From positions 1-64,000 of the forward strand of contig RPFO01000240.1 in assembly GCA_009746045.1 (NCBI GenBank): a stretch of DNA of 64,000 nucleotides. Direction: 5' to 3'. The notes under the pieces were generated by a model. That model made no database searches, was not told the origin of the DNA, and was given only the letters and a program-made list of their open reading frames with translations. Shown in pieces: positions 16,118 through 57,586 of this stretch (the first letter of the stretch is position 1; each line of letters opens with the position of its first letter). Origin of the DNA: Mesostigma viride. Lineage: Eukaryota; Streptophyta; Mesostigmatophyceae; Mesostigmatales; Mesostigmataceae. The position numbers and the translations under genes are program-made.

Positions 16118-16118
16118 T

Positions 16119-18856: not shown

Positions 18857-18928
<72 letters not shown>

Positions 18929-21266: not shown

Positions 21267-21478
21267 CTCGAAGAGACTACCCGGTAGTCTGCTTCCTTCT
21301 GTTCGAAGCCAAGACGTTGGCTTTAGTGTTTATCAACCATCAGCAGTACAGGGAACGGCCTGGCTGACAGTTTGTAAAGGAAGTGTCTTGAGACAGATTT
21401 TAAAGCCTTTGGTTGTTGCTTCTTCTCAGCGAAACCTAGGCTTGTTGGTTCTTGTTTTGCCCATCGGTCAGCTGGTGC

Positions 21479-30964: not shown

Positions 30965-31037
30965 GGGTGGTCCCACGCGGAATGGGGTCATTTTTGGCGC
31001 ATTTTGCAAGAAAAAAACGCTAGTTTCAATCGTCCGA
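30965..31037 (+). repeat. Left terminal inverted repeat
   Basis: 73 bp matching the right end. Identity covers the first 24 bases, then after an 8 bp indel a second block with TTTTGCAAGAAAAAAACGCT and TTTCAATCGTCCGA, with one substitution. CGTCCGATCGCGT occurs twice just inside (31031 and 31068), a possible subterminal transposase site. Confidence 0.88.
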
Positions 31038-31781
31038 TCGCGTTTTTTTGCGCGAATTTGGCGTCCGATCGCGTATTTTCGAGCTAATTTGGTGTCATAA
31101 TGCTTAATTCATGTCAATTTGAGCGTACATTCCACATCGAGAGGCTTGAAAGTTAGTAATTCATGTAAATTTTACGTGGAGAGACTCGACATCATCCTAA
31201 CCTTTGTATTAACCATAGGACGAGCATTGCTAGCGCATGTCCAAGTGCTAACTTTCCCTCAAGCTTAATTTCGAAGGCCTCTTCCGTAATTTCGCTTCCG
31301 CGATCTGCTGTTCCGTTTTCGAGTTCCTCCTCTTCTTATCGATCTCCTTTGCAGGCGCCCAGACTTCCACATCCTTCCAGCTCTTGCCATCCGTCAGCTT
31401 TACCACCTTCATCGCGTAGTCCAGCGGCATCCACCACAACTTGTTCTTCAACTTCCCTCCCTTCTCCCCCTCAGCGAAAAACTTAAATGCGACGTCCCTC
31501 CACTTGGTGTCGTATCCAGACACCTGCCCATAAAGCATGACGTCTTCTAGCTTGGCATACATTGGCGTAGCCGTATCCTTGTTCCCTGCTTGCATAATGG
31601 CTGAAGTCCACCCATCACACCAAAAGGCCTCTGGTGCTCCGAACCCCATTTCCCCGTCCATAAGTCTCATTTCCAACGTGGGCTTCTCATCATCCTCATC
31701 GCCCGCCTGACTGTCTTCCGCCCCCTTAGGCTCCTCCCGTCCGGAAGTGTCAGCATGTACAGCCGCTGGTCCGAAGCCCAC

Positions 31782-32559
31782 TGTTGGAAAGGTAGAGGAA
31801 ACTAATGGGTTTTACACAATGCCTTGTGCTTGGCCTTGTTACCCTTGCACCTTGCAGGTGATGAAAGACTGAGCTTGAAGACAATGGAAGAGAGACCAGA
31901 AAAAGAGTTTTATTTCTTAGGCTGAGAGGTTAGGAAAAGAGGTACCTGGCCTTAGGAGCCAGTTTCTTTTTATACCTTTCTAGCTAGGAAGGATGACATC
32001 AGATGCTGATGTCATCATAGAAGCTTGTAGAAACATCTAAGCATATTCCCAGCATATTCTCAGTATATTCCAGGAATATTCCTGGCATATTCCTAGAACA
32101 TTCCAAGGTCATTCTAGAAAGGTTCTAATGAGCTGGCATGACAGTTGATTGCCAAATGTCCTCTGAACAATGTGCCACATCTAATGCTTAATAAAGTGAC
32201 ACATGGTTTCTACTTGGAATGACAAGTGTAATCCAATGAGTCTATCCACTTGTCAGTCAATGGAATGCAACACTTGTCACTATGAGCTTCCAACACATGT
32301 CAGCTCATGGAATGGACACTTGTCTACCAAAGAAGTACACCACTTGTCAAGCATGGAAGTGATGCTACTAGACCAACTCAGGTACAAGAGATCTATGGCC
32401 AAATATAGGACTATGGCACATGAACATTGATCAGCTCATTGAGAGCAATTCATCTAACTTATCAAATCTATCAAATTCTCAGCCCTTGTGAAGTAAAACA
32501 AAGAAGAATAAAGTCAGGCTGGAATATAGTGTGGGCAGGTGGGTATATGATCCCCAACA
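31782..32559 (-). repeat. Copia 3' LTR
   Basis: 778 bp. On the minus strand it carries a TATA-like TATAAAAA (31967-31974) and AATAAA (31909-31914). A cluster of TTC and GAA half-sites (32040-32130), such as GAACATTC and TTCTAGAA, resembles heat-shock elements. Confidence 0.93.
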
Positions 32560-32567
32560 CCCCCCTT
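32560..32567 (-). promoter_or_regulatory. Copia polypurine tract
   Basis: AAGGGGGG on the minus strand, directly before the 3' LTR, in the expected place for second-strand priming. Confidence 0.8.
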
Positions 32568-32587
32568 AGCCAGCTGAACACAAAGGA

Positions 32588-35500
32588 CTAAGTTGACATG
32601 AGTTTGCCACGCAGGGCAGTGAACCTGGCACGTGAAAGTGCCTTCGTCAGAAGATCAGCAAGCATGTCCTCCCCAGGACAATGCTTCATGGCGATGAGTC
32701 CCCCCTCCACCTTCTCCCGGATGAAATGGAAACGCACGTCAATGTGCTTCGTGCGCTTGGGATGAACAGGGTCACGAGCGAGTGCCACGGCGCCTGTGTT
32801 GTCGCAGAAGACAGGCGTGGGCCCCTGAACTGGATGCCCCAGCTCCCCCAACATGTGCCTCAGTGGAAGCACTAGCTGGGTTACGCTGCTAGCAGCAATG
32901 TACTCCGCCTCGCAGGAAGACAGGGCGGTAACGTGCTGCTTGCGGCTGCACCACTCGACTGCGGCCCCCCTGAACATCACTACATTGCCAGAGACAGATC
33001 TGCGTGTCTCAGGGCAGTTCCCCCAATCGGCATCCGTCCACCCCTCCAGCCCCCCTTGGCCACCATAGCGCAGTCCCAAATCCTTGGTGTGGACAAGGTA
33101 GCGCACCACTCGCTTGGCCAGCTCCAAGTCGCCCTCCGTGGGTGCCTGCATGCATTGGGCCAGCTGGTTGACAGCAAAAGCAATGTCTGGGCGCGTCCAT
33201 GTCGCGGCGTACATGAGAGCACCAACAATCTGCTGAAAGAGTTGATGGTTTGGGGCATCACACATTCCCCCCTCGCGACGGGGACTACCAGGCACTATAG
33301 GGGTGTGCACAGGGTGAGGGGTAGAAAGCCCAAAACGGGCAGCAATAGCTTCAATGTAGGGCCGTTGGTGCATGGTAAGGGAACGAGACGCAGGGTCGAT
33401 AGTAAGGGAAACACCGAGGAAAAGAGAGGGATTGTCCGACTCAGTGATTTGAAAAGTATTAGCCAAACGGCGAGACCAGGATGCCAGCCAGGAAGGGGAA
33501 GGATGAGCAGCAAGAATGTCATCGACGTGCACGAACACGAAACCACGAGACGAAGGGTAGTAATACAGGCACGCATCAATTTGGCTTTGGATGGCGCCGT
33601 CAGAAAGAAGGTGTGCACGGAACGTTTTATGCCAATTGCGTGGCGCTTGCTTGATGCCATACAAGCTGCGGTGCAGCTTCCACACAAGCACATCGCCATT
33701 GGCATCCCGCTCTTCAAAGCCAGTAGGGGGACGCACAAAGACATCCTCCTGTAGGGGAGCATAGAGAAAAGCGGTTCGGACATCGAGCTGCTTGACAGTA
33801 AAGCCAGACGTGACAGCTAAAGCAAGAGCAAGTCGCACGGTGGACGCACGAACAGTGGGGGAAAAGACTTCATTAAAGTCGATACCTTCACGTTGGGCAA
33901 AACCTTTCACGACAAACCTGGCCTTGTGACGGCCGTCGGACTTGACAGCAAATACCCACCGGGAAGGGAGGACCTTGGCACCGGCGGGCAAAGTACGCGG
34001 GCTCACAAGCGAGTATACTGCATGATCACGAATGCTATTAATTTCGCTCAACATCGCAGCCCACCACTCTGGACTGTTGTTAGCCTCAGTAAAGGAGACG
34101 GGAAGGGAAACGTCACTGCCAGTAAAATGCACTGTGTCAAAAAGATCACGAACTGACTGGTAATGCGGAAAAAAACGAGCCCATTTAGGCGACACCGTGA
34201 CAGGGGGAGCATAGGTAGTAATCTCCATCGCGAGGGGTTCACGGGTGCTACCGCAAAACATCAGCTCATCAGCAGTTGCCATGGCGACATTACCAGCTGG
34301 GTTACGTCGCAGCGCAGAGATTGTACTTTGCAGTCGAGCAGCACTTGAAGTGGCAGTGACCGGTGGACCAGCAGACAGCTCCCGTGCGTCACTTGGGGAG
34401 ACGTCGTCAGTAGTTAGGACGGGCTGTGAAAAGTTTGGAGCACCGTCGAGCGCCTCCGGAACTGGTCTAGGACTTGGGACGTTGACTGCATCAGGACTTG
34501 GTGCGTCCGCTCCCTCGTGGCGAAGCTCCTCAGGAATATCCCTTCTGGTGGCGTCCAGAAACCTCGCCTGAGACCGGGTGACCGGTCCGCTACGTTCGGC
34601 CAGAGAATTTGGCTGAACTTCTGCTACAGCCGGAAGATCAGTTGGTGAAGTTTCCTCCAGTGCGGCAGAACTTTCCAGAAGCGGCGCAGGAGTTGGCATG
34701 GCTCCATTGCGCCAGGCCTCATTGAAGGTGACATGCAGGCGGCGAATGACATCCTTGGATTCTGGACGGTAAATGAGGTACGCCGGCGATTCCAGATCAT
34801 AGCCGACGAAGATTCCAGGCAGAGCCTTGGCCTCCAGCTTGCCACGTGGGCCCTCCACCCGATAGAAGGCAGGGCAGCCGAAAATTCGAAGATTCGAGAG
34901 ATCCGCATTGCGACCGGTGAGCAGGAAGTGTGGCGTGGCACCTCCAGGATTCGAGCTAGACGGCAGGCGGTTAAGTATATAAACCGCGCAATTGAAGGCT
35001 AGTGCCCAGAATCCTTTGGGCAAACCGGCATGCGTGAGCATTGCCAGTGTCATGCCCATGGCCAGACCCCACAGCCGCTCCGCCACTCCGTTCTGCTCAG
35101 GAGTGTAGGGGCTGGAGAACTCCTGGTGCACTCGGTGTTCAGCGCAGACGGCCCGCCACGCCTGCCCAGTGAAGACTGCGTCGTTGTCGGTCCGGAGAAG
35201 AATCGAACCGTTGTAGAAGGGGCGAATTTCGCGCGCGAGCAGCTGCTGTAGGGCGTCAACAGCCTCGTCCTTGTGTCGAAGCGGAAAGCACCATCGCCAG
35301 CGGGTAGCATCGTCGGTGAAACCGAGCATGTAGCGGGCGCCTCCAATTGCTGGCTGCATCGGCCCGAGAATGTCGCTGTGAAGCTTGGCTCGGGGAACAG
35401 TCGATCGGAGCTGTCCAGGCGAAAATGAGCGCCTCTTGATGAAGCCAGCAGGGCAGGATGGGCAGCCAGGCGATGACAGGCGCCTCGAAAAAAGGTTAGA

Positions 35501-36931
35501 CTCCGGAATGGCGGCCAGCCTCTTGATCCGATCTTCGCCAGCATGCCCAAGACGCCAGTGCCAGAGCAGGCTCGCCGGCCGCTCGATGGCCGTGGCAGCC
35601 ATTGCCGCCTCGTCGCGCTCCGCAGGTAACACGTAGATGTTGTTCTGCAGCGCAATCTTGTGCGTCTCGTTGTCCAGCACCACTGTCTGCTCGGTGAGGT
35701 CGACTTTGTGGCCGTCCTTGGCGAGCTGCCCAGCTGATAGCAGTCGGGCGCTCAAGCCGGGCACGAAGAGCGCACCATTCAGGTGCACATGCTGGTTGGG
35801 CAGTTTGAGCCGAATCGTGCCCACTCCCGTCGCGCGAAGACGTCCTCCTGATCCGACGATGTTCCTAGTGGTGGGGGTGAGGGACACAAAGTCAGTGCGG
35901 CATGGGGACATGTGGCTGCTTGCAGCGGAGTCCAGAACCCAGGCAGGGGGCTTGGGGCTATACTGCGTGAGTGCAGCAGCCTCCTGCGACGGCGCCGACT
36001 CGGCGATGGTGGTGAAGACGAAGCCCTCCGGCAGCTCCGCGGCCTCCTGGGTGTTGTTGGCCACGCTTCCGCCAGGTGAGGTCTCCTTCTTGGTCGCTTG
36101 GTTGCCCCTCCTGCGCTGGTTGCCCCGCCGTCCTTGGTTCTTGCTTCGTGGCTTGAGCTGGGAGTTCTTTTGCCAGCACTGGGTCTCCGCATGCCCACTC
36201 CTGTTGCAGTAGGCGCAGTGCTTCCTCTCACCACCCTTGTTGGCAGTGTGGAAAGCTTGACCTTGGGCTGGCTCCTCCTTGGTAGCTTGAGAAGGCCGTC
36301 CTCCCAGCAGCATGTCCTCCGCCTCCAGCAGCGCAGCCTTGACCTCCTCCAAGCTGTCCTCCTCTTTGAAGTGCGCTGAAATCAGGGCAGGGCGATATCG
36401 GTCAGGCAGGCCGCTCTTGAGGATAGCCGCAAAATCTTGGTCGCTCATGACGCCTCCCACCGCACGGTAGTCCGCCAGCAGCAGCAATCCACGTAGGATA
36501 TACTGCCCCATGGTCTCCCCAGGCTTCATTTGCAGCCGGTGAAGCTGAATCCTGAGGTCCATGCGGTGACTCTTGGTGAGCTTTTGTTGCTCGTAGACCT
36601 CCCTCAGCGTCTTGTAGAGCTTGCTGCCAGATTGGTCTGGCACGAGCGATAGGATGCGCCTCGCTTCTCCCACAAGTGCAGCTGAGATGACAAGGCCAAC
36701 AGCTTGGTCAGCCTTGCGGTCCTGCCTGGTGCCCAGCAGGACGTCCTTAACCTCATAGAAGGAACAGAAACCCTCAAGAGATGTCTTGGTCTCCTCCCAG
36801 CCACGTAGGCTTGTGCCATCGAATTTCAGCACCATCTTGGAGCACACATTCAGCATAGGAGTGTAGTCGACGTCGCTTGCCATGGAGCTTGTAGCTGGGC
36901 TGGGTTTCTTGGTGGTCTTCTTGGAGCTCAT
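32588..36931 (-). CDS. Copia gag-pol polyprotein, 1447 codons, intact
   Basis: One open frame from an ATG 19 bases after the 5' LTR. Gag helices occupy about 1-215. The zinc knuckle CAYCNRSGHAETQC (239-252) is CX2CX4HX4C. Protease is at D334 in VLDSAASSHM (DSA where DSG is usual). Integrase has an HHCC region near 458-495 (HWRLGHAG and CPSC), and catalytic D520, D582 and E618 (NGVAER). RT includes LDVRTAFLY (D1050) and VHVDDILA (1134-1141, HVDD in place of YVDD). RNase H includes WTDADWGNC, SCEAEYIA and CDNTGAV near the end. The order gag-PR-INT-RT-RH is that of Ty1/copia. There is no stop or frameshift, unlike most coding DNA around it. Confidence 0.96.
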   Translation of the reverse strand: MSSKKTTKKPSPATSSMASDVDYTPMLNVCSKMVLKFDGTSLRGWEETKTSLEGFCSFYEVKDVLLGTRQDRKADQAVGLVISAALVGEARRILSLVPDQSGSKLYKTLREVYEQQKLTKSHRMDLRIQLHRLQMKPGETMGQYILRGLLLLADYRAVGGVMSDQDFAAILKSGLPDRYRPALISAHFKEEDSLEEVKAALLEAEDMLLGGRPSQATKEEPAQGQAFHTANKGGERKHCAYCNRSGHAETQCWQKNSQLKPRSKNQGRRGNQRRRGNQATKKETSPGGSVANNTQEAAELPEGFVFTTIAESAPSQEAAALTQYSPKPPAWVLDSAASSHMSPCRTDFVSLTPTTRNIVGSGGRLRATGVGTIRLKLPNQHVHLNGALFVPGLSARLLSAGQLAKDGHKVDLTEQTVVLDNETHKIALQNNIYVLPAERDEAAMAATAIERPASLLWHWRLGHAGEDRIKRLAAIPESNLFSRRLSSPGCPSCPAGFIKRRSFSPGQLRSTVPRAKLHSDILGPMQPAIGGARYMLGFTDDATRWRWCFPLRHKDEAVDALQQLLAREIRPFYNGSILLRTDNDAVFTGQAWRAVCAEHRVHQEFSSPYTPEQNGVAERLWGLAMGMTLAMLTHAGLPKGFWALAFNCAVYILNRLPSSSNPGGATPHFLLTGRNADLSNLRIFGCPAFYRVEGPRGKLEAKALPGIFVGYDLESPAYLIYRPESKDVIRRLHVTFNEAWRNGAMPTPAPLLESSAALEETSPTDLPAVAEVQPNSLAERSGPVTRSQARFLDATRRDIPEELRHEGADAPSPDAVNVPSPRPVPEALDGAPNFSQPVLTTDDVSPSDARELSAGPPVTATSSAARLQSTISALRRNPAGNVAMATADELMFCGSTREPLAMEITTYAPPVTVSPKWARFFPHYQSVRDLFDTVHFTGSDVSLPVSFTEANNSPEWWAAMLSEINSIRDHAVYSLVSPRTLPAGAKVLPSRWVFAVKSDGRHKARFVVKGFAQREGIDFNEVFSPTVRASTVRLALALAVTSGFTVKQLDVRTAFLYAPLQEDVFVRPPTGFEERDANGDVLVWKLHRSLYGIKQAPRNWHKTFRAHLLSDGAIQSQIDACLYYYPSSRGFVFVHVDDILAAHPSPSWLASWSRRLANTFQITESDNPSLFLGVSLTIDPASRSLTMHQRPYIEAIAARFGLSTPHPVHTPIVPGSPRREGGMCDAPNHQLFQQIVGALMYAATWTRPDIAFAVNQLAQCMQAPTEGDLELAKRVVRYLVHTKDLGLRYGGQGGLEGWTDADWGNCPETRRSVSGNVVMFRGAAVEWCSRKQHVTALSSCEAEYIAASSVTQLVLPLRHMLGELGHPVQGPTPVFCDNTGAVALARDPVHPKRTKHIDVRFHFIREKVEGGLIAMKHCPGEDMLADLLTKALSRARFTALRGKLMST

Positions 36932-36937
36932 GAAGAT

Positions 36938-36950
36938 TCCTCCGATACCA
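36938..36950 (-). promoter_or_regulatory. Copia primer binding site
   Basis: TGGTATCGGAGGA on the minus strand, directly after the 5' LTR. It closely resembles the TGGTATCAGAGC site that pairs with initiator methionine tRNA in plant copia elements. Confidence 0.8.
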
Positions 36951-37728
36951 TGTTGGAAAGGTAGAGGAAACTAATGGGTTTTACACAATGCCTTGTGCTT
37001 GGCCTTGTTACCCTTGCACCTTGCAGGTGATGAAAGACTGAGCTTGAAGACAATGGAAGAGAGACCAGAAAAAGAGTTTTATTTCTTAGGCTGAGAGGTT
37101 AGGAAAAGAGGTACCTGGCCTTAGGAGCCAGTTTCTTTTTATACCTTTCTAGCTAGGAAGGATGACATCAGATGCTGATGTCATCATAGAAGCTTGTAGA
37201 AACATCTAAGCATATTCCCAGCATATTCTCAGTATATTCCAGGAATATTCCTGGCATATTCCTAGAACATTCCAAGGTCATTCTAGAAAGGTTCTAATGA
37301 GCTGGCATGACAGTTGATTGCCAAATGTCCTCTGAACAATGTGCCACATCTAATGCTTAATAAAGTGACACATGGTTTCTACTTGGAATGACAAGTGTAA
37401 TCCAATGAGTCTATCCACTTGTCAGTCAATGGAATGCAACACTTGTCACTATGAGCTTCCAACACATGTCAGCTCATGGAATGGACACTTGTCTACCAAA
37501 GAAGTACACCACTTGTCAAGCATGGAAGTGATGCTACTAGACCAACTCAGGTACAAGAGATCTATGGCCAAATATAGGACTATGGCACATGAACATTGAT
37601 CAGCTCATTGAGAGCAATTCATCTAACTTATCAAATCTATCAAATTCTCAGCCCTTGTGAAGTAAAACAAAGAAGAATAAAGTCAGGCTGGAATATAGTG
37701 TGGGCAGGTGGGTATATGATCCCCAACA
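36951..37728 (-). repeat. Copia 5' LTR
   Basis: 778 bp, same length as the other LTR. Promoter of the element (TATA-like TATAAAAA at 37136-37143 on the minus strand). Confidence 0.93.
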
Positions 37729-40404
37729 CCCACCGCCACATTTGCCAAGCGAAGTAACTGCTCCACATCCTCCTTACCTGCGAGCAAACCGATCATGCCA
37801 TCAACGCATGACTAAAATCGAGTTAGTAGAAATCGGACTGCCAACCGTAAAAAATGAAAACACTCGACATAACAGAATTCACTCGCAGATTTTTTCTTAC
37901 CCTTTTTGGCCTTTTCCTTCGACCTCTGCTCGCAGGTAGACCCCGTCTGGGGGTGGGGGGCAGGCGCCGGGGCGGGTTTGGCGGGCTCGGCAACCTTGGC
38001 AGTCTTCGCGGTCTTGGGTAACTTCTTGGAAGCAACGCGCTCCTTTCCCCCGTCCTCCTCCTCTCCGCCGCCATCCTCCTCCTCCTTCTCCTCCTCATCG
38101 TCCGAATCTGAAAGCACAACTGCTTTTCGACGCCGTTTCTGAGGCAGGGCAGGCTTGGCAGCCTTCCCCACCTTGGCCGATTTCTTGGAAGCAACGTGCT
38201 CCGCAGCCTTCCCACCCTTGGCGGATTTCTTGGTAGCAACGTGCTGCTCCTCCTCCTCCTCCTCCTCCTCCTCCCCCTCCTCCTCCTCAGCATCGTCGTC
38301 CTCCTCCTCCTCCTCCTCCTCACTCAGCATCGTCGTCCGAATCAGCCACTGCCACAAGTTGCTTACGAAGCTGCTTCTTCGGTACCTGAGAAATGGGCTG
38401 AGTCCGCGGGGGAACCCGAAGCGTACTCTTCGGTACTTGAGAACTGGGCAGAGGCGCCGGGGTGGGCAGAGTCGGCAAGGGAACCCGAAGCTGCTTCTTC
38501 GGAACCTGAAAAACGGGCTGCGGCGCGGCAGGCTTGGAAGGCCCACCTCCATCATCCTCAACAAGTGACACGACTGCACGTCGAGTCACTTGAGAAGCGG
38601 GCTTCTTCGCCGCAGGCGGATCCGAATCACCTTCAGGCCCCGTCATCTGTTCGGCCTGCTGCGTTCTCACCTCGACGGGGGTCTCTCCGCGGTTAGACCC
38701 TCCTGCCGGACCTCCATCCCCTCCATCCCCTCCCTCCAACAACTGTTGGTCATCCCTCTCCACCACGGCGGACAATCCCCCAGCTTCGTGGGAAGCTTTT
38801 CGCTTCTTCGCCCTTCCGAGCCTAGGCCCCCATCACCTTCCCCCGTTCAAGCCGCTCCCACAATTCAGTCCCAATCCCGATCCTTTCCGTTATCTCTTGA
38901 AACCCCTTAATCTCCGGCCTGGTACCAAACACGATCACCATCGGTTCGAACCTGGAGAAAAACTCTTGGGCGCAAGCCTTCAGCACATGATCGTAGATCC
39001 CGCCCGGTTGGGGAATGTCCGATTCTGGCGGGCAAGGACCAAACGCCCACCACCTGGACTGAAAGTCAACTCCACTTATCACCCCAAATGTTCGCCAAGT
39101 TCAGCAGGCTCAGGCACGGAAGGGACCTGCCCAAGGGAAAGGGTGGGCTGAAGCTGAGGCAACCTCGCCTGCCACCTGCTTGACGAGCGACTCGTCATCT
39201 TTATCACCGAGGAGGACGTGACAGCAAAACCAGACCCGGCGACGGCCCCAGTCCACACTACGCCACTCATACACAACGTCCCACTCCTCCTTCCCCTTCG
39301 CCTCCTCCTCCTTCTTCGCCACCGTCTCCTTCCCCTTCCCCTTCCCCTTCTCCAGCCCCTTCACCGGCCCCTTCATCGCCGCCTCCTTCACCCCCCTTCG
39401 AGTAATCCAACTTTTGGAGCGTACTTCCTGAACGCTTCCGGAGCCAAAAGTGCCAAACCCACCGTCTTGTCCTCGCTCTCTTTTAGCAGAATCTCCTGAA
39501 AGTCGATCTTGCCACTACTGAGATCCTTTCTCGGAATCCTCAGATGTGCGGCGTGTTTTTTGGCTTTAAGAAGGTAGGCGATGTTCCTCGTTATGATGAC
39601 GGCCACATCCCAAAATTCCCGGTATCTGGCCACAATCTGCTCCCTGCCGACTGGCCGAGGGAGAGGATGGAGATTGAAGACGAGTTCGAAAATATGAGAC
39701 GCCACAAACTCCTTGCCCTTTGCGTCCTTGCATTTCGCTTCCAGCGTCACATCCTCCTTGAATCTGGCGCAAATGGTCAGCCGCAGGCACTCCAGCACAT
39801 CCTTGGCGAACTCCACCAACTTGGTGAGCTTTTCCGGTCCAACCTGGCAGCTCATGATGCAATCGATCACGGCGTCCATCATAGGAAGGCTGGCCAAGTT
39901 CCTGAAAGCGGTCCAAGAGACCTTCTGGCCTTTCTTCTCCCCCTCTGCATTCGCGAATTTGCACCTTTGCATCATCACCTCCTCAGGCGCGGGTTTCGTT
40001 GAGGCAGGATCATCAGTCTGCTCCTGTGTCAGACGGAGAAACGTGTTGGCCAGCGTGCGACTGTAAGCGGAATGCACTGAAGCAATGCTGTGGGCCGGCT
40101 TTTTCTTTCCTTCTGCTTCCTCCTCGTGTACATCCACCGCTGCCGGCTCCACATTCCCTTCCCTTCCCCCCGCTTGCCGCATAGCCGGGAGGATGTACGT
40201 GAGCAGATTGGTATAGTGGCCATCCGCAATATAGTGGCCCTTCCCACGCGTGACTTTGCCGTGTAGATATAGCTTGTTGTAGTTCCACACGTCAAGCAAC
40301 GCCTGGCCCAGCGTACGATCCGCCACGGCTAAGTCCTCCGAATTCGCCCCCTTGGCGATGTCGAACAGCTTCTCCAGCTTGCCGGTCAGCACCGCCTGCG
40401 ACAT

Positions 40405-40650
40405 CAATTAACATCGAGCGAGCAACGACAAAACTCAGTCATAAAAGGCGAGGGGTATAGCTGCGGATAGACCCTAACAAAATTCGAAAAAGAAACGGCC
40501 GACAATACGCAACGAAAATTCCAACAAAAAAAAGGAGAGGGTCTAGCTGCAGCGAGACCCTCGCAAAAAACTTGAAGCGCACACAAAAAACAACCACGAA
40601 AATTCCGAGGGTCTACCCGCAGCTAGACCCTGCCAAAATAGATAGCTTAC
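40405..40650. other. Intron or intergenic gap with three 22 bp palindromes
   Basis: Palindrome copies at 40453-40474, 40539-40560 and 40609-40630. GTAAGC follows the upstream coding region at 40650, and an acceptor-like CAG precedes 40395, but joining these gives a stop. Two adjacent genes are therefore as likely as one intron. Confidence 0.6.
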
Positions 40651-45785: not shown

Positions 45786-45862
45786 CTGCAGAACAATATC
45801 AAAAAAGCAAGTTTCACAAATGTCATTCAGAATCTGAATCGCCGGCAGAAAAACGATGGGGA

Positions 45863-46325: not shown

Positions 46326-46329
46326 TTAC

Positions 46330-47110: not shown

Positions 47111-47120
47111 ATTATTAAAT

Positions 47121-48235
47121 GATACGTAGCAGCACCCCCCCACATGTATTGATACGTAGCAGCACCCCCCCACGTGTATTGATACGTAGCAGCACCCCCC
47201 CACATGTATTGATACGTAGCAGCACCCCCCCACGTGTATTGATACGTAGCATCACCCCCCCACGTGTATTGATACGTAGCATCACCCCCCCACATGTATT
47301 GATACGTAGCATCACCCCCCCACATGTATTGATACGTAGCAGCACCCCCCCACATGTATTGATACGTAGCAGCACCCCCCCACATGTATTGATACGTAGC
47401 AGCACCCCCCCACATGTATTGATACGTAGCAGCACCCCCCCACATGTATTGATACGTAGCAGCACCCCCCACGTGTATTGATACGTAGCAGCACCCCCCC
47501 ACATGTATTGATACGTAGCAGCACCCCCCCACATGTATTGATACGTAGCAGCACCCCCCCACATGTATTGATACGTAGCAGCACCCCCCACATGTATTGA
47601 TACGTAGCAGCACCCCCCACATGTATTGATACGTAGCAGCACCCCCCACATGTATTGATACGTAGCAGCACCCCCCACATGTATTGATACGTAGCAGCAC
47701 CCCCCCACGTGTATTGATACGTAGCAGCACCCCCCCACGTGTATTGATACGTAGCAGCACCCCCCCACATGTATTGATACGTAGCAGCACCCCCCCACAT
47801 GTATTGATACGTAGCATCACCCCCCCACATGTATTGATACGTAGCAGCACCCCCCCACATGTATTGATACGTAGCAGCACCCCCCCACATGTATTGATAC
47901 GTAGCAGCACCCCCCACATGTATTGATACGTAGCAGCACCCCCCCACATGTATTGATACGTAGCATCACCCCCCCACATGTATTGATACGTAGCATCACC
48001 CCCCCACATGTATTGATACGTAGCAGCACCCCCCCACATGTATTGATACGTAGCAGCACCCCCCCACATGTATTGATACGTAGCAGCACCCCCCCACATG
48101 TATTGATACGTAGCAGCACCCCCCCACATGTATTGATACGTAGCAGCACCCCCCCACATGTATTGATACGTAGCAGCACCCCCCACATGTATTGATACGT
48201 AGCAGCACCCCCCACATGTATTGATACGTAGCAGC
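47121..48235 (+). repeat. Minisatellite block 2, ~37 units of 30 bp, inverted relative to block 1
   Basis: Highly uniform units ATTGATACGTAGCAGCACCC followed by CCCCACATGT. Variation is limited to CAG/CAT, ACATG/ACGTG and the number of C (6 or 7). This is the opposite orientation of block 1, and the turn is at about 47110-47121. The high uniformity suggests recent expansion. No unique spacers, so not a CRISPR. Confidence 0.95.
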
Positions 48236-48236
48236 A

Positions 48237-48393
48237 CAATTTTAGTCAGCCTACCATCCACGTTGCGGCAAAAGATCACCTTTTTTTGTGTTTCGGCAAA
48301 ATGAAGATTTCTTGCAAACTATCGTTATGCAGGCAGGTAGCAACGTCCGATGTTATAATCCGGCAGGTAGCATGCAAACGTCGAAACGATATG
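48237..48393 (+). repeat. ~160 bp direct repeat, copy 1
   Basis: Begins CAATTTTAGTCAGCCTACCA and ends CGAAACGATATG. It matches 48802-48962 with scattered differences. Between the copies (48394-48801) I see no gene. Confidence 0.85.
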
Positions 48394-48801
48394 AAGGGGA
48401 AAAAAAGCATCAAACAGGAGCACCGATTAGAAACGCAGCAAATGCAGTATGTGCACATCTACACCTATAACCTAACCAGACCAAAGGCATAGCAAACATG
48501 GAAAGGGTGACCCAAGTGAAAGCCTAGCACCACCATGATCGACATGTGCGAGACCAAGAAACGCTCCATGGCAACTAGACTAAAGGGATGGATGCCAGAT
48601 GTGGATTAGGATCGGCTTAGCTGACTCTACCGAGATGTCTGCAGGGTTTAGCTAGCAACGAAAAGAAGGAAGCCAGACATTTTTATCACTCTTGCTGCAA
48701 CATAGAGTTTCTTGCGATGGCAACAAAGACATAGTCGTCGCCCAGCTGGCTAACTGTGTCGTCGGCGTGCATGCGCTGTTTAGTTGCCGTTTTTGATAGA
48801 A

Positions 48802-48962
48802 CAATTTTAGTCAGCCTACCATCCAGGATGCGGCAAAAGCTCACCTTTTTTTCGTTGTGCGGCGAAAGCAGACCGATTTCCTTGTAAACTTCCGGCACCA
48901 GGCAGGTATCAACGTAGGATTTTATAATCCAGCAGGTAGCATGCAAACGTCGAAACGATATG
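48802..48962 (+). repeat. ~160 bp direct repeat, copy 2
   Basis: Second copy of 48237-48393, at roughly 85% similarity by eye. It is followed by a region with a degenerate palindrome (GGGGTCTCTCTGCGGCTG at 48979). Confidence 0.85.
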
Positions 48963-50061
48963 GCAGCTCGTATCAGCTATGGGGTCTCTCTGCGGCTGCG
49001 CTTCTTTTTCGATGGGCGATGGGACGGTCGCAATTCGCAAACCGGACGCGGCGTCACAGGGCTGAACGGTATTGAAAAAATTGGAAACGTGGCATCCTCG
49101 TTCCTCCCCACGGAACTGAAAACTGGAAGCGCGGCGCTGGTGCAAAAGCTCGATCCCATCTTTTGGAACCAAGCTATATAGCGGATTGGACGACATCCAA
49201 TATGCCGTCACCCGTGCTTGTGGCCGCAGGTATAAAAAGAGACGACCTCCAGCCCATTTACCTGGGAACATTCGGATGTTTGGCTGACATCGTTACCATG
49301 CAGAAATGTACAATGAGGTTCTGGGTTCGATTCCTGGTGTGGTCATGGTAATAAATTTTTTTCTGCACATCTACTGAAATCAGTCATAGCACCAAACGGT
49401 CACGCTGCAGCGAGACGCTATAGCCCTGGAGGCCGCTGATAAACCTGACATCCGGTATGTCTTACTATCATAGATTGCCGAACTATATAATAATAATAGT
49501 CTATACCACTTTTTCTTGTAAATGATTTACTAAATAATGATTCTATATACTTTAACATACCATATTATTAAAGTATGTGGAATTAATCCATGCTATTCAC
49601 AATATATTATAAAATCTTTTGCAAAATATACTGTAATTAGTATATATATTTTCTGATAAACAATTTTATCAATGCTACTGTGTTATTTTTGTTATTCTCG
49701 CCATGCAGGTATCTGAGTGTTCTGGGAGAACTAATAAGAGAATGAGCCGCGAAGGTGAGGAAAACCTGAAATCTTTTCGTCCTTATTGGGGTCTCTCTGC
49801 AGCTAGACCATTTATGACCACAAGCAATAGCTTAAACTCATGGGTCTTGCTGCAGCTAGACCCTCTTTATGGTTGCTATAAAATTAATGAATCAGAAGTC
49901 TGTGATTTAACAATCGCACGCCGCAATCAAGGGTCTAGCTGCAGCGAGACCCCAATCTTGGTTGGGGTATGCTAAGTTCACCACATCAGGTAATCTTTTC
50001 GTCTAACGGAAAAAGCCCCTCTAAGGGTCTAGCTGCAGCTAGACCCCAATCGTGGTAAAAA
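48963..50061. other. Mostly non-coding, with palindromes and an AT-rich block
   Basis: Contains a tRNA T-arm-like GGTTCGATTCC (49324-49334) followed by AATAAA, an AT-rich block (about 49440-49690), and palindromes at 49398-49419, 49789-49810, 49842-49863, 49931-49952 and 50025-50046. Small frames here could be upstream exons of the transposase gene, but I cannot join them with confidence. Confidence 0.6.
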
Positions 50062-50382
50062 ATGATACACTTTCGAACTTTGTCTGTAATTGTCGCTTTT
50101 CCCAACGATACTCGATTTGCATGGATTTTGTTATGCCGGTCGTCATGGCATGCAGCACGCGAACGGGTGGGAGTTTTCGCCCTTGCGTCCGGTCGTCCAG
50201 GATTCAGTGCAATTAAGTTGAACACCGGGACGAAGCAGCCAACTGGCGCAAAAAGGGTTTTCGGAGATGAGAACCAGAATCCAGCGCAGCCTGAAGCCAA
50301 GGAAGTCAAGCGGCCGGGAGAATACAAGAAATCAAAGAGGGTTATGACACTTGAGCTCCCAAGAAAACCAGCATTTGATTGA
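50062..50382 (+). CDS. Short hypothetical ORF or exon
   Basis: 106 codons ending LELPRKPAFD. The second half (AKRVFGDENQNPAQPEAKEV) looks like a nuclear, charged peptide. Its last 13 codons lie in a 121 bp repeat that recurs at 50945. Function unknown. It may be a 5' exon of the transposase gene displaced by the local duplication. Confidence 0.3.
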   Translation: MIHFRTLSVIVAFPNDTRFAWILLCRSSWHAARERVGVFALASGRPGFSAIKLNTGTKQPTGAKRVFGDENQNPAQPEAKEVKRPGEYKKSKRVMTLELPRKPAFD

Positions 50383-50462
50383 AAACAATGAGTAGAGCCC
50401 CTGCCAAAGGCAGGTTTAAGTAGTCATCTCGTCTCCCTCGCATGCAGGAGCAAGAGCCCCCC
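50342..50462 (+). repeat. Tandem duplication unit 1, P segment
   Basis: 121 bp from TTATGACACTTGAG to GAGCCCCCC, repeated at 50945-51065. It is followed after 18 bp by the Q segment. Confidence 0.93.
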
Positions 50463-50480
50463 AAGGGTGGGATGGGTGGG

Positions 50481-50948
50481 AAGAAACAATTACGGGTCAC
50501 AACCCGCCGACCATGCTTATCAAGCCTACCGTCAAAATGGAAAACGGCAAAACCAGAAATATCCTAACGCTGACAATTTAATAATTCAGCCAGCCAGCTC
50601 ATCTGTCACACGTCTGAGCTGTCAGGCCATGTGTACTCTTCGAATGCAACCCTGAACACACTACCCAACCAAGCAGCACACCAATCAATTGGTGAGTGCT
50701 GGTTACATCAGATTTTATTACAACTTTTTGACGCAACTTCCGTCAGCATTCAACACATGGCCGGCCGTTCAAACAAACGGCGCCTGACTTACAAAAGGCA
50801 AAGCTAGTTGCCAGTAGGATTCCCCGGTAAACAACAAGCCGTCCCCATTCGTCTAACAAGCCTTTCTGCATGTACAGCCACAAGGTTGTGGCGGCCCTTT
50901 CTTTCCCGCATGCTGTTTAATAAACTATTTTCAGAGAAATCCGATTAT
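50481..50948 (+). repeat. Tandem duplication unit 1, Q segment
   Basis: 468 bp from AAGAAACAATTACGGG to AATCCGATTAT, repeated at 52016-52483. It includes TTTTCAG before AGAAATCC, which in the second copy is the splice acceptor of the transposase exon. Confidence 0.93.
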
Positions 50949-51065
50949 GACACTTGAGCTCCCAAGAAAACCAGCATTTGATTGAAAACAATGAGTAGAG
51001 CCCCTGCCAAAGGCAGGTTTAAGTAGTCATCTCGTCTCCCTCGCATGCAGGAGCAAGAGCCCCCC
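50945..51065 (+). repeat. Tandem duplication unit 2, P segment
   Basis: Same 121 bp as 50342-50462. It starts inside the last bases of Q1, so the two units share TTAT at the junction. Confidence 0.93.
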
Positions 51066-52015
51066 GATCCACCCCAGTCCCTGGCGCCGTTACCCTCCTC
51101 CCCCGCACTGTCGCCGCTCAGGAAACAAAACTTGATAGGATCACTGTTGCCCCAATAACAGTGAACAAAGAAAAGGAGAAGACCCCCCCCCTCTTCCGAG
51201 CAGCCTCGAGGGTAGCCGCTTCCATAAAAGACCACAAAGTGGGGCGTGTCGCAACATCTCCTTCATGGCGACTCAGCCCGCACAAGGCTATAATAACCCC
51301 CTAAGGGGCCCGACAATAAAAGGTTAGCGAATCCGCGGAGCCGCCTCAGCAAAATATTATTCCGGATAAAAACCCAGAAAATTCGCATTCCGACGCCACC
51401 AGGGTTTGAACCGCTACCTGCCGGGTGCTGAGCAGGGAGAGACGACAAGGCCAGACACTGCCACTGTCAGCCGAGACGCCTTTCCGATACTCGGTTCCTT
51501 TTGTGGGAATTTTGCAAATATATTTTCTTCCGGAACGCAAGAAATTAGCCGGCCGCGCGTCACCCTTATATCCCTCGCTGGCCCATAACAAAAAAGGGCC
51601 GCGCACCAAGCCGAAGGCAGCGCCATGCAGCGCCCTAGGCGGTGGGCCGCTGACTGACTACCAGCGCAGTCTCATGGAATCCAAATTAATCTATTGACCT
51701 TCGCACAGTTTCCGCATCAGCTGCGGACTTCTTAGTCGACATGATTGGCTCCGCTGCTGGAATTACCAGCAGCCGGGGCGGGGCGCCCAGCCCACTTTCT
51801 ATGACCACCGAGACGCTGCCCAGCAAGGTGCCAACCAGAACCACTTGGCACATTGGTAACGCGAAATTTCCGTTCCGTTCAAACCGCCCCTACCTGCCGT
51901 GAAGTCGCAAAGCCCGCGACTTCATAGCAGGCAAGGACGGGGTCTTTGCCTAATTTTCTTTAGCCCCGCCGCCATAGCAGCGAGGGCGCGCATACTGCTT
52001 CAGTGAGCACATTCA
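51066..52015. other. ~950 bp present only in duplication unit 2
   Basis: GATCCACCCCAG at the start and CACATTC at the end, replacing the 18 bp between P and Q of unit 1. No gene is recognised. A weak tRNA T-arm-like GGTTCAAACC (minus, 51400-51412) is not part of a foldable tRNA. It is either an insertion in unit 2 or a deletion in unit 1. Confidence 0.6.
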
Positions 52016-52483
52016 AAGAAACAATTACGGGTCACAACCCGCCGACCATGCTTATCAAGCCTACCGTCAAAATGGAAAACGGCAAAACCAGAAATATCCT
52101 AACGCTGACAATTTAATAATTCAGCCAGCCAGCTCATCTGTCACACGTCTGAGCTGTCAGGCCATGTGTACTCTTCGAATGCAACCCTGAACACACTACC
52201 CAACCAAGCAGCACACCAATCAATTGGTGAGTGCTGGTTACATCAGATTTTATTACAACTTTTTGACGCAACTTCCGTCAGCATTCAACACATGGCCGGC
52301 CGTTCAAACAAACGGCGCCTGACTTACAAAAGGCAAAGCTAGTTGCCAGTAGGATTCCCCGGTAAACAACAAGCCGTCCCCATTCGTCTAACAAGCCTTT
52401 CTGCATGTACAGCCACAAGGTTGTGGCGGCCCTTTCTTTCCCGCATGCTGTTTAATAAACTATTTTCAGAGAAATCCGATTAT
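52016..52483 (+). repeat. Tandem duplication unit 2, Q segment
   Basis: Same 468 bp as 50481-50948. It ends inside the first exon of the transposase-like gene (exon start 52470). Confidence 0.93.
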
Positions 52484-55400
52484 CGGGGAATTTTTCGCTG
52501 ACAAGGCGTTTGAAGTGGCTCAGGCGATGACAAAACCCGAGGGGCGGGGGCCGGCATTCGAGCAGATGATTGCTGGCTTTAACTCTAGGGCCGCTGAACT
52601 AGGTCACGGGCTGTATCATGAGGAGGCGAAAAAACTTTACAATCAGGATCGGATGGCAGAACTGAACAGGTTCTGGGTGGCTCGGATTAACGGCTTTTTT
52701 GATGGTCTGACAAAAAGCGACCCAGACAGAGACGTCAGAATGGTGCTGATGTCCACGCTTTACTGTGGTGACGACTTGGAGAAGGAGTTTTCGGCCGCGG
52801 AGTTGGAGAAGCTAACGGGGGCGGACGCCAAGAAGATTCGCGGAATTCGCGCGATTCGAAGGCAGCAGAAGCTGAACTACCTCAGACACGCGCAGGCTCG
52901 CCAGGGGCGCCCTTTGCCGCAATTCGTGATTGACGCGATAGTGGACGCGTGGATGCACGATGATGAGTCGCGCGCCTCCTCCCAGATGAAGGATGTCAAG
53001 CGCACTTACAGCAGGGAGGGTCATGGCAATCGCGGGGTGCTCGTCGCCGTTGAGGGAGCGCGCTATTACATGACCTCCAAGGAGGACATGTACAATCACT
53101 TTCTCGAAAAGCACGCGTACTGGAACAAAAGGAGTGACCAGTATGATAAGGACGTGGGCATTCACGTGGGCTACACGACCTTCTGCAAATACGCGCCCGA
53201 TTGCATCAAGGGCAAGTGGAAGGAGAGGAACCTGTGCGCGTGTGAGAAGCACGTCACCATGCAGTCGGCCATGGGGGCGTGGACCAAGCACTGCAATGCG
53301 AACCACGGCAAGAACTGCAAGTGTGGCGCGGAGTGTGCGGGATGCTCCAAGTACAGACTGCCGGATGGTACTTGCGGAATGTGGAAAGCCATTCGCTCGA
53401 CGGACTGGATCAAGCACTTTCACTGCCCGGTGTCCGCCGAGACTGACGGCAGGGATAACGGGCTGCGTGAAGGGGGCGGAATGGGCGGGGGGATGGAAGA
53501 GGGGGGGGGGGAAGATGAATGGCGGGGACGGGACCTGGAAGACCTCGACATTTCTGAGAGGCTGGTGGAGGACGAAGATGGGGTGCCGAGGACGGAGAGG
53601 GTTCACCGCATACTGAAGATGGCGTGTGTGGAGGGGTTCTGTCCTGAGGAATCATGCGGCATCCATAATAACTGGGTGCAGTGTGATCGGGACAAGAATT
53701 CCACGGAGATTCTGAATTGGTTCAAGTTTGAGATGGTGGAGCAGACTGTGACCCGAGGGGTGAGGGTGAGTAGGTTTCGATTTTATTTCTCCGTTAAAAT
53801 GTTGTTGACTTTTTGTTTTTGTGACCTATAGCTGCAGCGAGACCCTTTGTGAGTTGCAGTTATCTGATCGAAATGCGATTTTATTGCAAATCGAAACTGT
53901 CTGCGGACCTTTGCGAAACAGGGCGAGACCGATGGCAGGGCGGCGAAGAAGGTGAAGCGGCCCGAGCAAGTCCAAATGAGGTCCACCCCAGCTGAGCTGC
54001 GGGACGAGATTCTTAAGAGGTGGGACAAGTTCACCGTGCACTGCTTTACGGCCTGGTCGCAGGCGGATACAATCAAGGATCGGGAGAAGAATCTGAGAGA
54101 GGGGGACGTGCTCGTGCACGGCGACTGGGCCGAGAACTACGAGAACAGCAGCTACGTCCAACTGCAGTCGCAGTACTTCCACAAGCGCAGCCACATCCTG
54201 ATGCCCATGATCGTGCGTTATCGGCTCAACGGCGAGCTGGAAAAGCGCGTCTTCTTTTTCCTGGGGGATTCCAGTATCAAGCGGGGCGAGCGCGCACTCG
54301 TATACGCTCTTCGCAAGATTCTGGAAACCCTGCGGGTAGAAGTAGGGGTAGAGGTGCGAAACCTGTACATGTGCTCGGACAACTGCGCGGTGCAGTTTAA
54401 GTCCAGGTACGTGATTAACCAGATTAACGGTCTGCTCATGGGGGATCCCGACCTGCAGGCCTTTGAGTTCCACTACATGGGGGAGCAGCATGGGAAGGGG
54501 GAGGTGGATGGTCAAGGAGCGAAGTGCAAGTGCGTCTTGAGGGAAATGCAGAGGATTCCCGAAAACCAGCAAATACTTGAGACCCACCAGCTAGTCGCCT
54601 ACTTGAACCAGAACTGGCAGGGCGGCAAGACATCGAGCAGGGAGTCGGCCCGCGCGCGGGCCGAGAACGTCACTCGCCACTTCTTCCTTTTACCCCCGGT
54701 ACGGAATTTTGTGTTATTTCAGGTTTTAAGACGTCAACTGCCGATGTTCTACAAAAATTCAAACCCAATAAAGGTATCTCTGCAGAGAGACCCTATATAC
54801 TGTCAATGGGTTGCTTTTCTTTTAGGTATGAAATTTCGCTTGTTCTATCGGTATGAAGGGGTCTCTCTGCAGCTATACCCTGTGTCGAATTTCGATCACT
54901 TGATATCTTGTCGTACGTTGTTATTATGATTCGAATGGGGTCTCTCTGCAGCTATACCCTGTGTCGAATTTTGATGACTGTATGTCTTGTCGTTAATTTT
55001 TTTTTTGTAAGGGGTCTCTCTGCAGCTATACCCTGTTTTATTGATTTTTGGTCAATTTTGCTTACTTGAACGGTATTCTTTTTGTCCTAACTATTTGATG
55101 ACAGGACGTCGAGTCCGGCCGACGCGCGGAGGTGGAGGAGGTGCCTGGCATCAAGAAGGCGCATTGGTGGCGACTGGACAAGTCCGACCCTGGCCTTTTG
55201 ATGATTAGGCGCTATTCCTGCTACTGTCCGCCCTGTTTGGCTGGGCGGTTTGAGGGATGTCTAAGCGAGTGGTCGTTTATCATCGAGTTCAATGATGCAG
55301 GAAGCTCGATGAAAACTGTCCGTTTGCTGCCACCGAGCCAGCCCAACCCTCCGGTTCGCATGGTGACGCGGGGGGAGCAGCTGAAGGACAAGCGGGAGGC

Positions 55401-55851
55401 GATGGGCCGGCAGATGAGACTCCACGACTATGTGGCAGTTCCATCGGACAAGGACACGGATCACGATCCCATCCACCCGTTCTGGTTGGCTGAGGTTGTA
55501 AGCGAAGCCGGGCCGATCGTGTTAGACGAGAACTTCGAGAGGTGGGTCGAGGGCCGGAACGGACGGGAGAAGGAGCTGTTCCTCGCCGGGAATGGCATTC
55601 TTCCCGTTCGGATTTGGAAGCGGGATAAGCATGACCCCCTGCATTTCACGCTCAACGTTGAGGATTGGCCACCGTCACGCCAGCCCGAGCTTGTGAATTG
55701 CTATCTCTGCGTCGCTCCGGCTCTCCGGCTAGAAGCACGCGTGCGCAGCGACGGAATGTGTGCCGACATCAGGATGAGCAAGGAGCTCGACAAGTGGCTT
55801 ACTGCGCTGGTGATCAAGGATGAAGCCCCGGAGGGGCCGGCACCGACTTAA
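52470..55851 (+). CDS. DDE/RNase H-fold transposase-like protein, three exons
   Basis: Exons 52470-53765, 53922-54698 and 55105-55851 join in phase 0 at GT-AG sites (GTGAGT/CAG, GTACGG/CAG), giving about 939 codons. Exon 1 has helices and a Cys/His-rich part (CACEKHVTM, CKCGAECAGC) that may bind zinc. Exon 2 is the catalytic candidate: GDWAENY (first Asp), FFLGDSSIK, LYMCSDNCAVQFKSRY (second Asp), and HYMGEQHGKGEVDGQGAK with Glu and Asp for the third position. Exon 3 has SCYCPPCLAGRFEGC, another Cys cluster. This ENY, SDN, HGKGxxDGxG pattern is, from memory, that of a widespread but poorly named protein family in animals and other eukaryotes, thought to come from transposons. It is the best candidate for mobilising the TIR element. 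More 5' exons are possible. Confidence 0.7.
54773..55033. repeat. Four palindromes in the second transposase intron
   Basis: Copies at 54773-54793, 54859-54880, 54938-54959 and 55012-55033, the last three nearly the same (GGGTCTCTCTG, CAGCTATACCC) and spaced 74-80 bp in a degenerate tandem array that shares CCTGTGTCGAATTT. The first intron also carries one (53824-53845). Confidence 0.88.
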
Positions 55852-56145
55852 ACAAGAAATTGGGGTCTCGCTGCGGGTAGACGACGCCCTAGTTTCGGCT
55901 CGTATTATATCTTTAGAGTGGGGCTTCAGTAGGGTGTAAAAAGGTGCCCGCATATATTGTATATACTTTTCGAGATCTTTCTGTGGTCAAGTTTAAGGGT
56001 AGTTGATAATTTTTTGCGGCCTTCAATTAACAGTTATTTTTTACTGCAACATAATTTTATGCTGTATATTTAAATAATGATAAGGATTTCGATATTTTTT
56101 TGCACAATCTATTCGACATTTGTTTCTGCAAATGTCGAGAATTTA

Positions 56146-56352
56146 TTGCTCCACCCCCACAAAAAAATCGTTCCGGAACTGTTCGAAGAGAATAGCAATG
56201 ACAGGATTCGAACCCGGGTCCACATTGATGTTCGGAGTGAGGTAGGCCAGCCACCATGTTCTGCACTCAAATCTGGCTCGGGTCCGATCCCTTGCAGTGC
56301 TCTTCGCTTCGAACAGCTCCGGAACAAGTTTTTTGTGGGGTTGGAGCAATAA
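56146..56352. repeat. Inverted pair of short tRNA-like (SINE-like) elements
   Basis: On the plus strand, GGGTCCGATCCC is followed by CTTCGAACAGCTCCGGAAC, a T-rich run, and GGAGCAATAAAT (to 56352). On the minus strand the same order appears from GGGTTCGAATCC (56217) down to GGAGCAATAAAT (56146). The T-arm-like box, common tail and AATAAA suggest a tRNA-derived SINE in two head-to-head copies. No complete tRNA cloverleaf can be drawn. Confidence 0.55.
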
Positions 56353-56509
56353 ATACTTATTTGCCGGGCGCAGTTGTCATTCCGCCTAGTACAATTGCGT
56401 CACTAGTACAATTTTTGTCTGGGTACGGTACGAACCAATAACGCAATATTTAGTATCTAATCGCCGCTGCTCTTGCTGAATTTTAACCGGAAGCTGAAGA
56501 AGGTGTCCG

Positions 56510-57112
56510 GTGAAGCGAATAGTAGTGACTGGTGGTCGTGCCCTTCCATTACTCCTTATCGACAAATTTTGGGTTCTACCTGCAGTGATAACCCTTGCGC
56601 GTCTGGCTGTCGGGGTCACCAATTTCCTGTCGATTGCAAGCAGCCAAGCTTGCCGAAATTTAACACTGTCACAAATGGAGCAGAGCGATATTTTCGGTTC
56701 TCAGCATACCTATGTGATGGTCGACAAAAATGAGCACGCTGCAAACATCAGAATTGATGTAGAGTTGCTCGGACCTTCTGCACAGTGGGGTGCAGGTGTC
56801 ATTGCGTTCGGCAATGGCATGATCGATCTGGTGCCACCCGATTCAGATTTGAACCCTGCTTACCAATGCGTGCCTGACAATCAGGCGAGAGTGGTGGTGG
56901 AGAGCACGGAAATTCCGGGCTCTCCCAATGTATCAATGATGCGCCTGAGGGCTGAGGCCCAGCAGGAGTTCCTGGCTGCTGCGGAGAACGGCGGGGCCAA
57001 GTGGAACACCAAAATGTATACAGGCGAGCCTCCCAACTACAGGGGAGACCTGTACCAGGGAGTGTACTCCTTCGGCGATTTTGACATCGACGGATGGGGC
57101 ACCTTTTTCTAG
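56510..57112 (+). CDS. Hypothetical protein near the right end of the giant element
   Basis: 200 codons. The N-terminal 35 residues are hydrophobic (LPLLLIDKFWVLPAVITLARL) and could be a membrane segment or intronic noise. The rest has balanced composition (RIDVELLGPSAQWGAGVIAF, YQGVYSFGDFDIDGWGTFF). The first in-frame codon is GTG, so the true start or a splice acceptor lies elsewhere. No family recognised. It may be a gene of the giant element, as it lies 400 bp inside the right inverted repeat. Confidence 0.4.
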   Translation: MKRIVVTGGRALPLLLIDKFWVLPAVITLARLAVGVTNFLSIASSQACRNLTLSQMEQSDIFGSQHTYVMVDKNEHAANIRIDVELLGPSAQWGAGVIAFGNGMIDLVPPDSDLNPAYQCVPDNQARVVVESTEIPGSPNVSMMRLRAEAQQEFLAAAENGGAKWNTKMYTGEPPNYRGDLYQGVYSFGDFDIDGWGTFF

Positions 57113-57518
57113 GCGCAATGCCTAAGTTGTCAAATACTCGACAATGTCGACTTTATGTGCACATATTTATATTCATTGAGAATGATAAAATTACGGACAT
57201 GTGCACATTTATATACTGATTCAATAAAAAATTTCGGCAACTTTGTTCCCGGCATTGATAATCAAAAGCTGCTAGCAGGCCAAGGACTTCAAAAGTGGCA
57301 ATAGATCGATGTAGGTCGTCGCTAAACTTGTCTAGTCGTCATATTTCGGTCGCAAAATTCGTGCGTGGCCTGCAGGCATCGGACAAAGTGCACGCAAAAG
57401 CAGGAGTCGGTTGAGTTCGAAGCACGGCAGACAAAAAATTTCGGCGCAGAGTCCGTCCGGCGAAAAATTCGCTCGGCTGCCAAATTTTCGGCAAGAATTT
57501 CGGCGCAATGTCCGGTTT

Positions 57519-57582
57519 TCGGACGATTGAAATTAGCGTTTTTTTCTTGCAAAAATCTACCCCATTCCGCGTGGGACCACCC
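57519..57582 (-). repeat. Right terminal inverted repeat
   Basis: 64 bp, inverse of the left end, 8 bp shorter. Inside it, AATTTCGGCGCA occurs twice (57436-57447 and 57497-57508), which may be subterminal binding sites. Confidence 0.88.
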
Positions 57583-57586
57583 GTTG

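What the first reader, a model, noticed from the sequence alone, without database searches (positions are those of the whole stretch)
30965..57582. A ~20.7 kb multi-gene TIR element that may be an undescribed giant DNA transposon
Both borders are fixed by inverted ends beginning GGGTGGTCCCACGCGGAATG, a 4 bp GTTG duplication, and restoration of the interrupted X reading frame on excision. Inside are a transposase-like gene and two multi-exon genes with no recognisable domain. I know of no named family with these ends, this target size and this cargo; that judgement is from memory.
Basis: partly seen in the sequence, partly recalled or inferred. Interest (0 to 1): 0.92.

Follow-up and report, generated by a model that had tools for sequence, protein, structure and literature searches.

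The report
Giant algal jumping gene, multigene family
The stretch is one of many nearly identical copies of a roughly 20,000-base jumping DNA element in the green alga Mesostigma viride, with its own probable cutting enzyme, a large conserved companion gene and about two dozen matching palindromes, and it may be the first member of an undescribed lineage of giant transposons.

Summary
Confirmed and extended. 30965-57582 is one copy, with nested insertions, of a giant TIR DNA transposon of Mesostigma viride. Its 20-bp end occurs 628 times genome-wide (reversed control 14). Of 28 end pairs inspected, 24 have an exact 4-bp duplication, one 5 bp, three none. The empty target site occurs 418 times (control 0). 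Six other copies read end to end (19.5-21.6 kb) are collinear with it.

The plus-strand gene encodes a protein with a predicted RNase H-like core, probably a DDE/D transposase; capped searches found relatives only in Mesostigma. A second family (catalytic exon 68% identical, related ends) keeps the same gene set under purifying selection, so the "cargo" is core equipment. Family-A elements carry 22-24 copies of a 22-bp palindrome, 2951 genome-wide (control 0); its arms do not covary, suggesting protein-dimer sites.

Best reading: a recently mobile cut-and-paste transposon, probably a new lineage, possibly a new superfamily. Superfamily placement, catalysis and the accessory gene's function remain open; no copy was shown intact in every gene.

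The parts
30961..30964 (.). left target-site duplication GTTG
   Evidence: empty site
30965..31037 (+). left terminal inverted repeat (73 bp alignable to right end)
   Evidence: 628 ends genome-wide
31248..31776 (-). left-end ORF of the minus-strand block; about 53% identical homologue in family B
31782..37728 (-). nested Copia-type LTR retrotransposon (LTRs identical, TSD CCCAC; type judged by eye), not part of the transposon
37780..39387 (-). continuation of the minus-strand block (region E8b, frame broken here)
39388..40395 (-). minus-strand gene exon E8 (335 aa, open in C1)
40651..41812 (-). minus-strand gene exon E7 (389 aa in C1; frameshifted in the window)
42002..42544 (-). minus-strand gene exon E6 (181 aa in the window; frameshifted in C1)
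42671..43203 (-). minus-strand gene short exons E3-E5 (putative)
43311..44366 (-). minus-strand gene exon E2 (352 aa)
44552..45785 (-). minus-strand gene exon E1: ATG, Ser/Pro/Arg-rich then Glu/Lys-rich coiled-coil-like (open in copy C557; frameshifted in some others)
38679..55884 (.). span of 23 dispersed 22-bp palindromes, consensus by eye GGGTCTMKCTGCAGMKAGACCC, mostly in putative introns and intergenic stretches (judged by eye, not counted)
46338..48237 (.). 30-bp minisatellite between the divergent genes, variable in length between copies
49709..49754 (+). transposase first exon
50156..50345 (+). transposase exon 2, 5' part
50346..52483 (.). nested ~2.1-kb insertion (TSD TTAT) that breaks transposase exon 2 in this copy; not part of the transposon
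52484..53765 (+). transposase exon 2, 3' part (Cys/His-rich region); donor at 53760 or 53766
53922..54698 (+). transposase catalytic exon: DWAENY, SDN, HGKGEVDG; predicted RNase H-like core
55105..55851 (+). transposase last exon (HWWR, CYCxxC)
56082..56377 (.). ~0.3-kb stretch present in 5 of 6 other full copies, absent from C1
56498..57112 (+). small right-end ORF; homologue in family B (46% over 94 aa)
57519..57582 (-). right terminal inverted repeat (64 bp)
57583..57586 (.). right target-site duplication GTTG

Best explanation
A giant, recently active cut-and-paste TIR DNA transposon (family A) of Mesostigma viride. The plus-strand gene encodes an RNase H-like DDE/D transposase that pairs the GGGTGGTCCCAC ends and inserts with a 4-bp stagger (ends, duplication and empty sites are shown; the fold is predicted; catalysis is inferred). 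The same enzyme mobilises a 10.3-kb element without comparable coding sequence in trans (inferred from shared ends and identical sampled copies). The large minus-strand gene is a conserved accessory, most likely a DNA-binding protein (inferred); the 22-24 internal palindromes are protein-dimer sites, most likely for an element-encoded factor that counteracts silencing or organises the element for transposition (inferred).
Against: Three of 28 pairs lack a TSD (C382, C100, C310); one (C224a) has 5 bp, and its 58-kb interval holds two catalytic exons, so it may be nested copies. No copy was shown to have every gene intact: the window has an insertion in the transposase and frameshifts; C1 has frameshifts in exons E1 and E6. 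Model confidence is modest (mean pLDDT 36.7 and 57.0), no Foldseek match had E below 0.001, and the third catalytic acid is not placed. Only one divergent palindrome was found in the family-B sequence read, although family B has the minus-strand gene, which weakens a fixed link between that gene and the palindromes. Within family A, 6 of 14 coding segments had pN/pS above 1, 5 below 1, and 3 had no silent differences, so copies show little sign of selection after insertion.
Confidence: 0.85

Rival explanations
1. It belongs to a known 4-bp-TSD superfamily, most likely Sola (or Ginger/Academ, recalled), as an oversized member; the sequence has merely diverged beyond recognition.
For: Sola2 elements have TIRs and 4-bp TSDs and can carry extra genes (PMC3627910, passages). 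The catalytic exon has a SDN..QFK motif of a general kind I recall from such transposases; a weak DUF7869 match lies exactly there (P0002 658-748, E 0.12, 12.3 bits against cut-off 26; E 0.082).
Against: The Sola2 TSDs in that paper are AT-rich; here most are not. No profile match reached a cut-off. No Sola sequence could be compared.
Confidence: 0.35
2. The minus-strand genes are captured host or viral cargo carried by a small transposon.
For: No recognisable domain and no homologue found for them.
Against: Family B, diverged at silent sites by more than 1 substitution per site (Jukes-Cantor), keeps the same genes, order and strand under purifying selection.
Confidence: 0.05
3. The palindromes are hairpins acting in RNA or single-stranded DNA (for example in the introns), or are themselves small mobile inserts.
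For: They lie mostly outside exons (by eye) and are near-perfect palindromes.
Against: The two arms vary independently: complementary positions 213 against 214.8 expected (p 0.72) in C1 and 216 against 215.9 (p 0.50) in C80. They sit at corresponding places in the full copies. Power is limited because mainly two positions vary.
Confidence: 0.15
4. An endogenous virus or virus-like element (Polinton type) rather than a plain transposon.
For: About 20 kb, several genes, TIR-bounded unit.
Against: No capsid, polymerase, integrase or ATPase match at cut-off in the exons scanned; no viral contig encodes a relative; 4-bp TSD.
Confidence: 0.04

Closest known systems
Sola2 DNA transposons (PMC3627910, passages read)
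   Same: TIRs, 4-bp target duplication, may carry an additional gene
   Different: AT-rich targets in the families described there; no demonstrated sequence relation; this element is about 20 kb with a conserved multi-gene set and dispersed palindromes
Giant EnSpm/CACTA families of the red alga Chondrus crispus, 16-20 kb, 4-5 ORFs (PMC6431247, section 5 read)
   Same: size and number of ORFs; algal host
   Different: 4-bp TSD here; EnSpm-related families in PMC12730594 (passages) have 2-3 bp and other termini
VANDAL21/VANC anti-silencing system of Arabidopsis (PMC5735166, abstract and passages)
   Same: a family-specific motif repeated in introns and intergenic stretches of the element and rare elsewhere, with accessory genes beside the transposase
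   Different: there a 9-bp motif often in tandem repeats, in another kind of transposon (a MULE, recalled); here a 22-bp palindrome; binding and demethylation are untested here
Pfam DUF7869
   Same: weak match over the second catalytic motif
   Different: far below the gathering score (12.3 against 26 bits)

Membership tests
TIR cut-and-paste DNA transposon | terminal inverted repeats defining the ends of many dispersed copies | tested here: met
TIR cut-and-paste DNA transposon | short target-site duplication and clean empty sites | tested here: met
   24 of 28 pairs with 4 bp; 418 empty sites
TIR cut-and-paste DNA transposon | RNase H-like DDE/D transposase | tested here: inconclusive
   predicted fold agrees; modest confidence, third acid not placed, no activity test
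Sola | 4-bp TSD | tested here: met
Sola | homology to Sola transposase | not tested
EnSpm/CACTA and relatives (CMCT) | 2-3 bp TSD and termini such as CATCA or TGT (PMC12730594 passages; CACTA recalled) | tested here: not met
   4-bp TSD; termini GGGTGG (family A) and GGCCGG (family B)
EnSpm/CACTA and relatives (CMCT) | C(2)C and H(3-4)H motifs between second D and last E (PMC12730594) | tested here: inconclusive
   last acidic residue not placed; a CYCPPC motif lies further downstream
Zisupton | 8-bp TSD (PMC12730594) | tested here: not met
VANDAL/MULE | MULE transposase domain | tested here: inconclusive
   no Pfam match at cut-off; a very divergent domain could be missed
Polinton/Maverick | family B DNA polymerase and capsid genes (recalled) | tested here: not met
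   no Pfam match at cut-off in the exons scanned
DUF7869 | score above the Pfam gathering cut-off | tested here: not met
   12.3 bits against 26

The most novel reading that the evidence does not exclude
A new superfamily of DDE/D transposons whose minimal autonomous unit is about 20 kb with a transposase and a large accessory gene, in which an element-encoded protein bound to two dozen dispersed palindromes licenses or de-silences the whole element, a solution to mobilising very long DNA that evolved independently of VANC/VANDAL.
Probability: 0.25. Interest if true: 0.87.

Novelty: new variant of a known kind. Interest (0 to 1): 0.72.

Why it matters
A review puts most eukaryotic DNA transposons well below this size and notes that transposition efficiency falls with cargo above about 6 kb (PMC6431247, section 5). 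Here a cut-and-paste element of about 20 kb has spread to more than a hundred catalytic-exon copies, mostly 98-100% identical in protein, in an early-branching streptophyte alga, with a shorter dependent element and a conserved accessory gene of unknown type. If the palindromes are target sites of an element protein, this offers a test of how giant elements escape silencing or bring distant ends together, and possibly a large-capacity insertion tool.

Full report
Source. The window is contig C2111 of a 439.9-Mb assembly. The transposase matches at 99% (81% of the region searched) a protein named after a JGI Mesvir1 model, and the published Mesostigma viride genome is 441.8 Mb (PMC6947507, passages), so I take the organism to be Mesostigma viride.

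The observation. The exact 20-bp ends, the GTTG duplication and the frame restored on joining the flanks are all present. A 32-base pattern across the joined flanks occurs 418 times in the genome (203 + 215) with up to 3 mismatches and 0 times reversed. The disrupted host sequence is a repeated retroelement, so these are paralogous, not allelic, empty sites. In the six fetched, the right flank matches over 866-1500 bp at 95-97% and the left only over the last 192 bp, at 90-92%.

Genome-wide. With up to 3 mismatches the end occurs 314 times on each strand, against 9 and 5 for the reversed pattern. Only about a hundred of these places are listed; from them I took by eye all 27 convergent neighbours within 60 kb, and added the window. 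In all 28 one end has the GGGGTCATTTT and the other the GGGGTAGATTT extension. Twenty-four have an exact 4-bp duplication, one 5 bp (C224a), three none (C382, C100, C310). The duplications show no shared motif by eye. Six pairs are 10.3-10.7 kb apart; the other 22 are 16 to 58 kb apart. The 58-kb pair (C224a) contains two catalytic exons, so it may be two nested or adjacent elements. Of the 28, only eight were read inside: the window and the seven below.

Copies. I read seven other elements end to end. Six (C1, C557, C323, C382, C85, C446; 19,535 to 21,568 bp) are collinear with the window, 95-99% identical over most segments and 86-92% in the palindrome and minisatellite region; C557 and C446 also have insertions. 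The seventh, C80 (10,314 bp), shares with C1 about 283 bp and a further 0.4 kb (83%) at the left, an inner 0.24-kb stretch and 140 bp at the right, and has no comparable coding sequence; its long ORFs are mostly tandem repeats by eye and were not sent to profile libraries. Six hundred bases from the middle of the five other 10.3-10.7 kb copies are 100% identical to C80. I infer recent mobilisation in trans.

The window copy is damaged: a Copia-type element with identical LTRs and a CCCAC duplication, a 2.1-kb insertion with TTAT duplication within transposase exon 2, and frameshifts in the minus-strand gene. C1 has frameshifts in exons E1 and E6. No copy was shown to be intact in every gene.

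A second family. Copies at 68% have their own ends, GGCCGGGCCCACTTCGAATG, 14 of 20 identical by eye to GGGTGGTCCCACGCGGAATG. One copy (C685) runs from 4933 to 24551, 19,619 bp, with an AAAT duplication; another (C442) is 22,144 bp without one; a third (C551) showed only its right end. The left part of family B encodes homologues of the minus-strand exons in the same order and strand (35-63% identity) and of the left ORF (53%); its right end has the small ORF (46%). Silent differences are near or beyond saturation (pS 0.59-0.72) while pN is 0.24 to 0.42. In family B exon E8 and the next region form one 810-aa ORF, so the break after E8 in family A is either a short intron or a frameshift.

Palindromes. 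A 22-bp dyad (up to 5 mismatches) occurs 24 times at corresponding places in each of the six full copies, 23 times in the window copy, 22 times in C80 at unrelated places, never in 37.4 kb of window flank and never in 10 mononucleotide shuffles of C1. Genome-wide with up to 3 mismatches: 2951, reversed control 0. Of the exact sites listed there (about a hundred rows), all but two places lie within, or within about 25 kb of, an end listed; the exceptions are C1:685719-686130, which proved to be part of a diverged copy (93-95% identical), and C58:518004, not followed up. The arms do not covary, which favours a protein dimer on duplex DNA. The shorter element retains such sites without sharing the surrounding sequence, which argues for function in cis. 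The layout resembles VANC21 target motifs in introns and intergenic stretches of VANDAL21 (PMC5735166); this is a resemblance of layout, not a test. In about 22 kb of family-B left parts none was found, and in its right part one divergent site.

Comparison. TSD length excludes Zisupton and, with the termini, argues against EnSpm. Sola shares the 4-bp TSD, and membership there was not testable. Nine paper searches of a CC-licensed library listed no description of such an element in Mesostigma by title or abstract; I saw listings, abstracts and passages, and one full section (PMC6431247, section 5). Subscription literature and Repbase were not searched.

Noticed in passing
window 23101-29325: A 2074-aa Gypsy-like polyprotein ORF that appears to contain a C5 cytosine methyltransferase-like stretch (LELFAGIGGG) and a PHD-finger-like end, read by eye (motifs recalled, no profile search run).
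   Followed up: no
window 1001-20904: Large near-perfect inverted repeat (arms 4029-9212 and 12681-17864, 99%; further arms 1665-2856 with 19048-20239 and 1001-1671 with 20234-20904) around 8-bp satellite arrays: a true palindrome or an assembly artefact.
   Followed up: no
window 6169-7029, 14899-15756, 61477-62255: A repeat of 187-bp period recurring in three places.
   Followed up: no
window 50346-52483: The 2.1-kb insertion has an A-B-A'-B' layout, as if an element inserted in tandem with an internal deletion in the first unit.
   Followed up: partly
window 56082-56377: A ~0.3-kb stretch with a tRNA T-arm-like motif (by eye; ARAGORN found no tRNA), shared by five of six other copies and cleanly absent from C1; possibly a SINE.
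   Followed up: partly
L080 (C1:685419-686418): A diverged (about 94%) fragment of the family with palindromes but no nearby listed end: perhaps an older layer of copies.
   Followed up: partly
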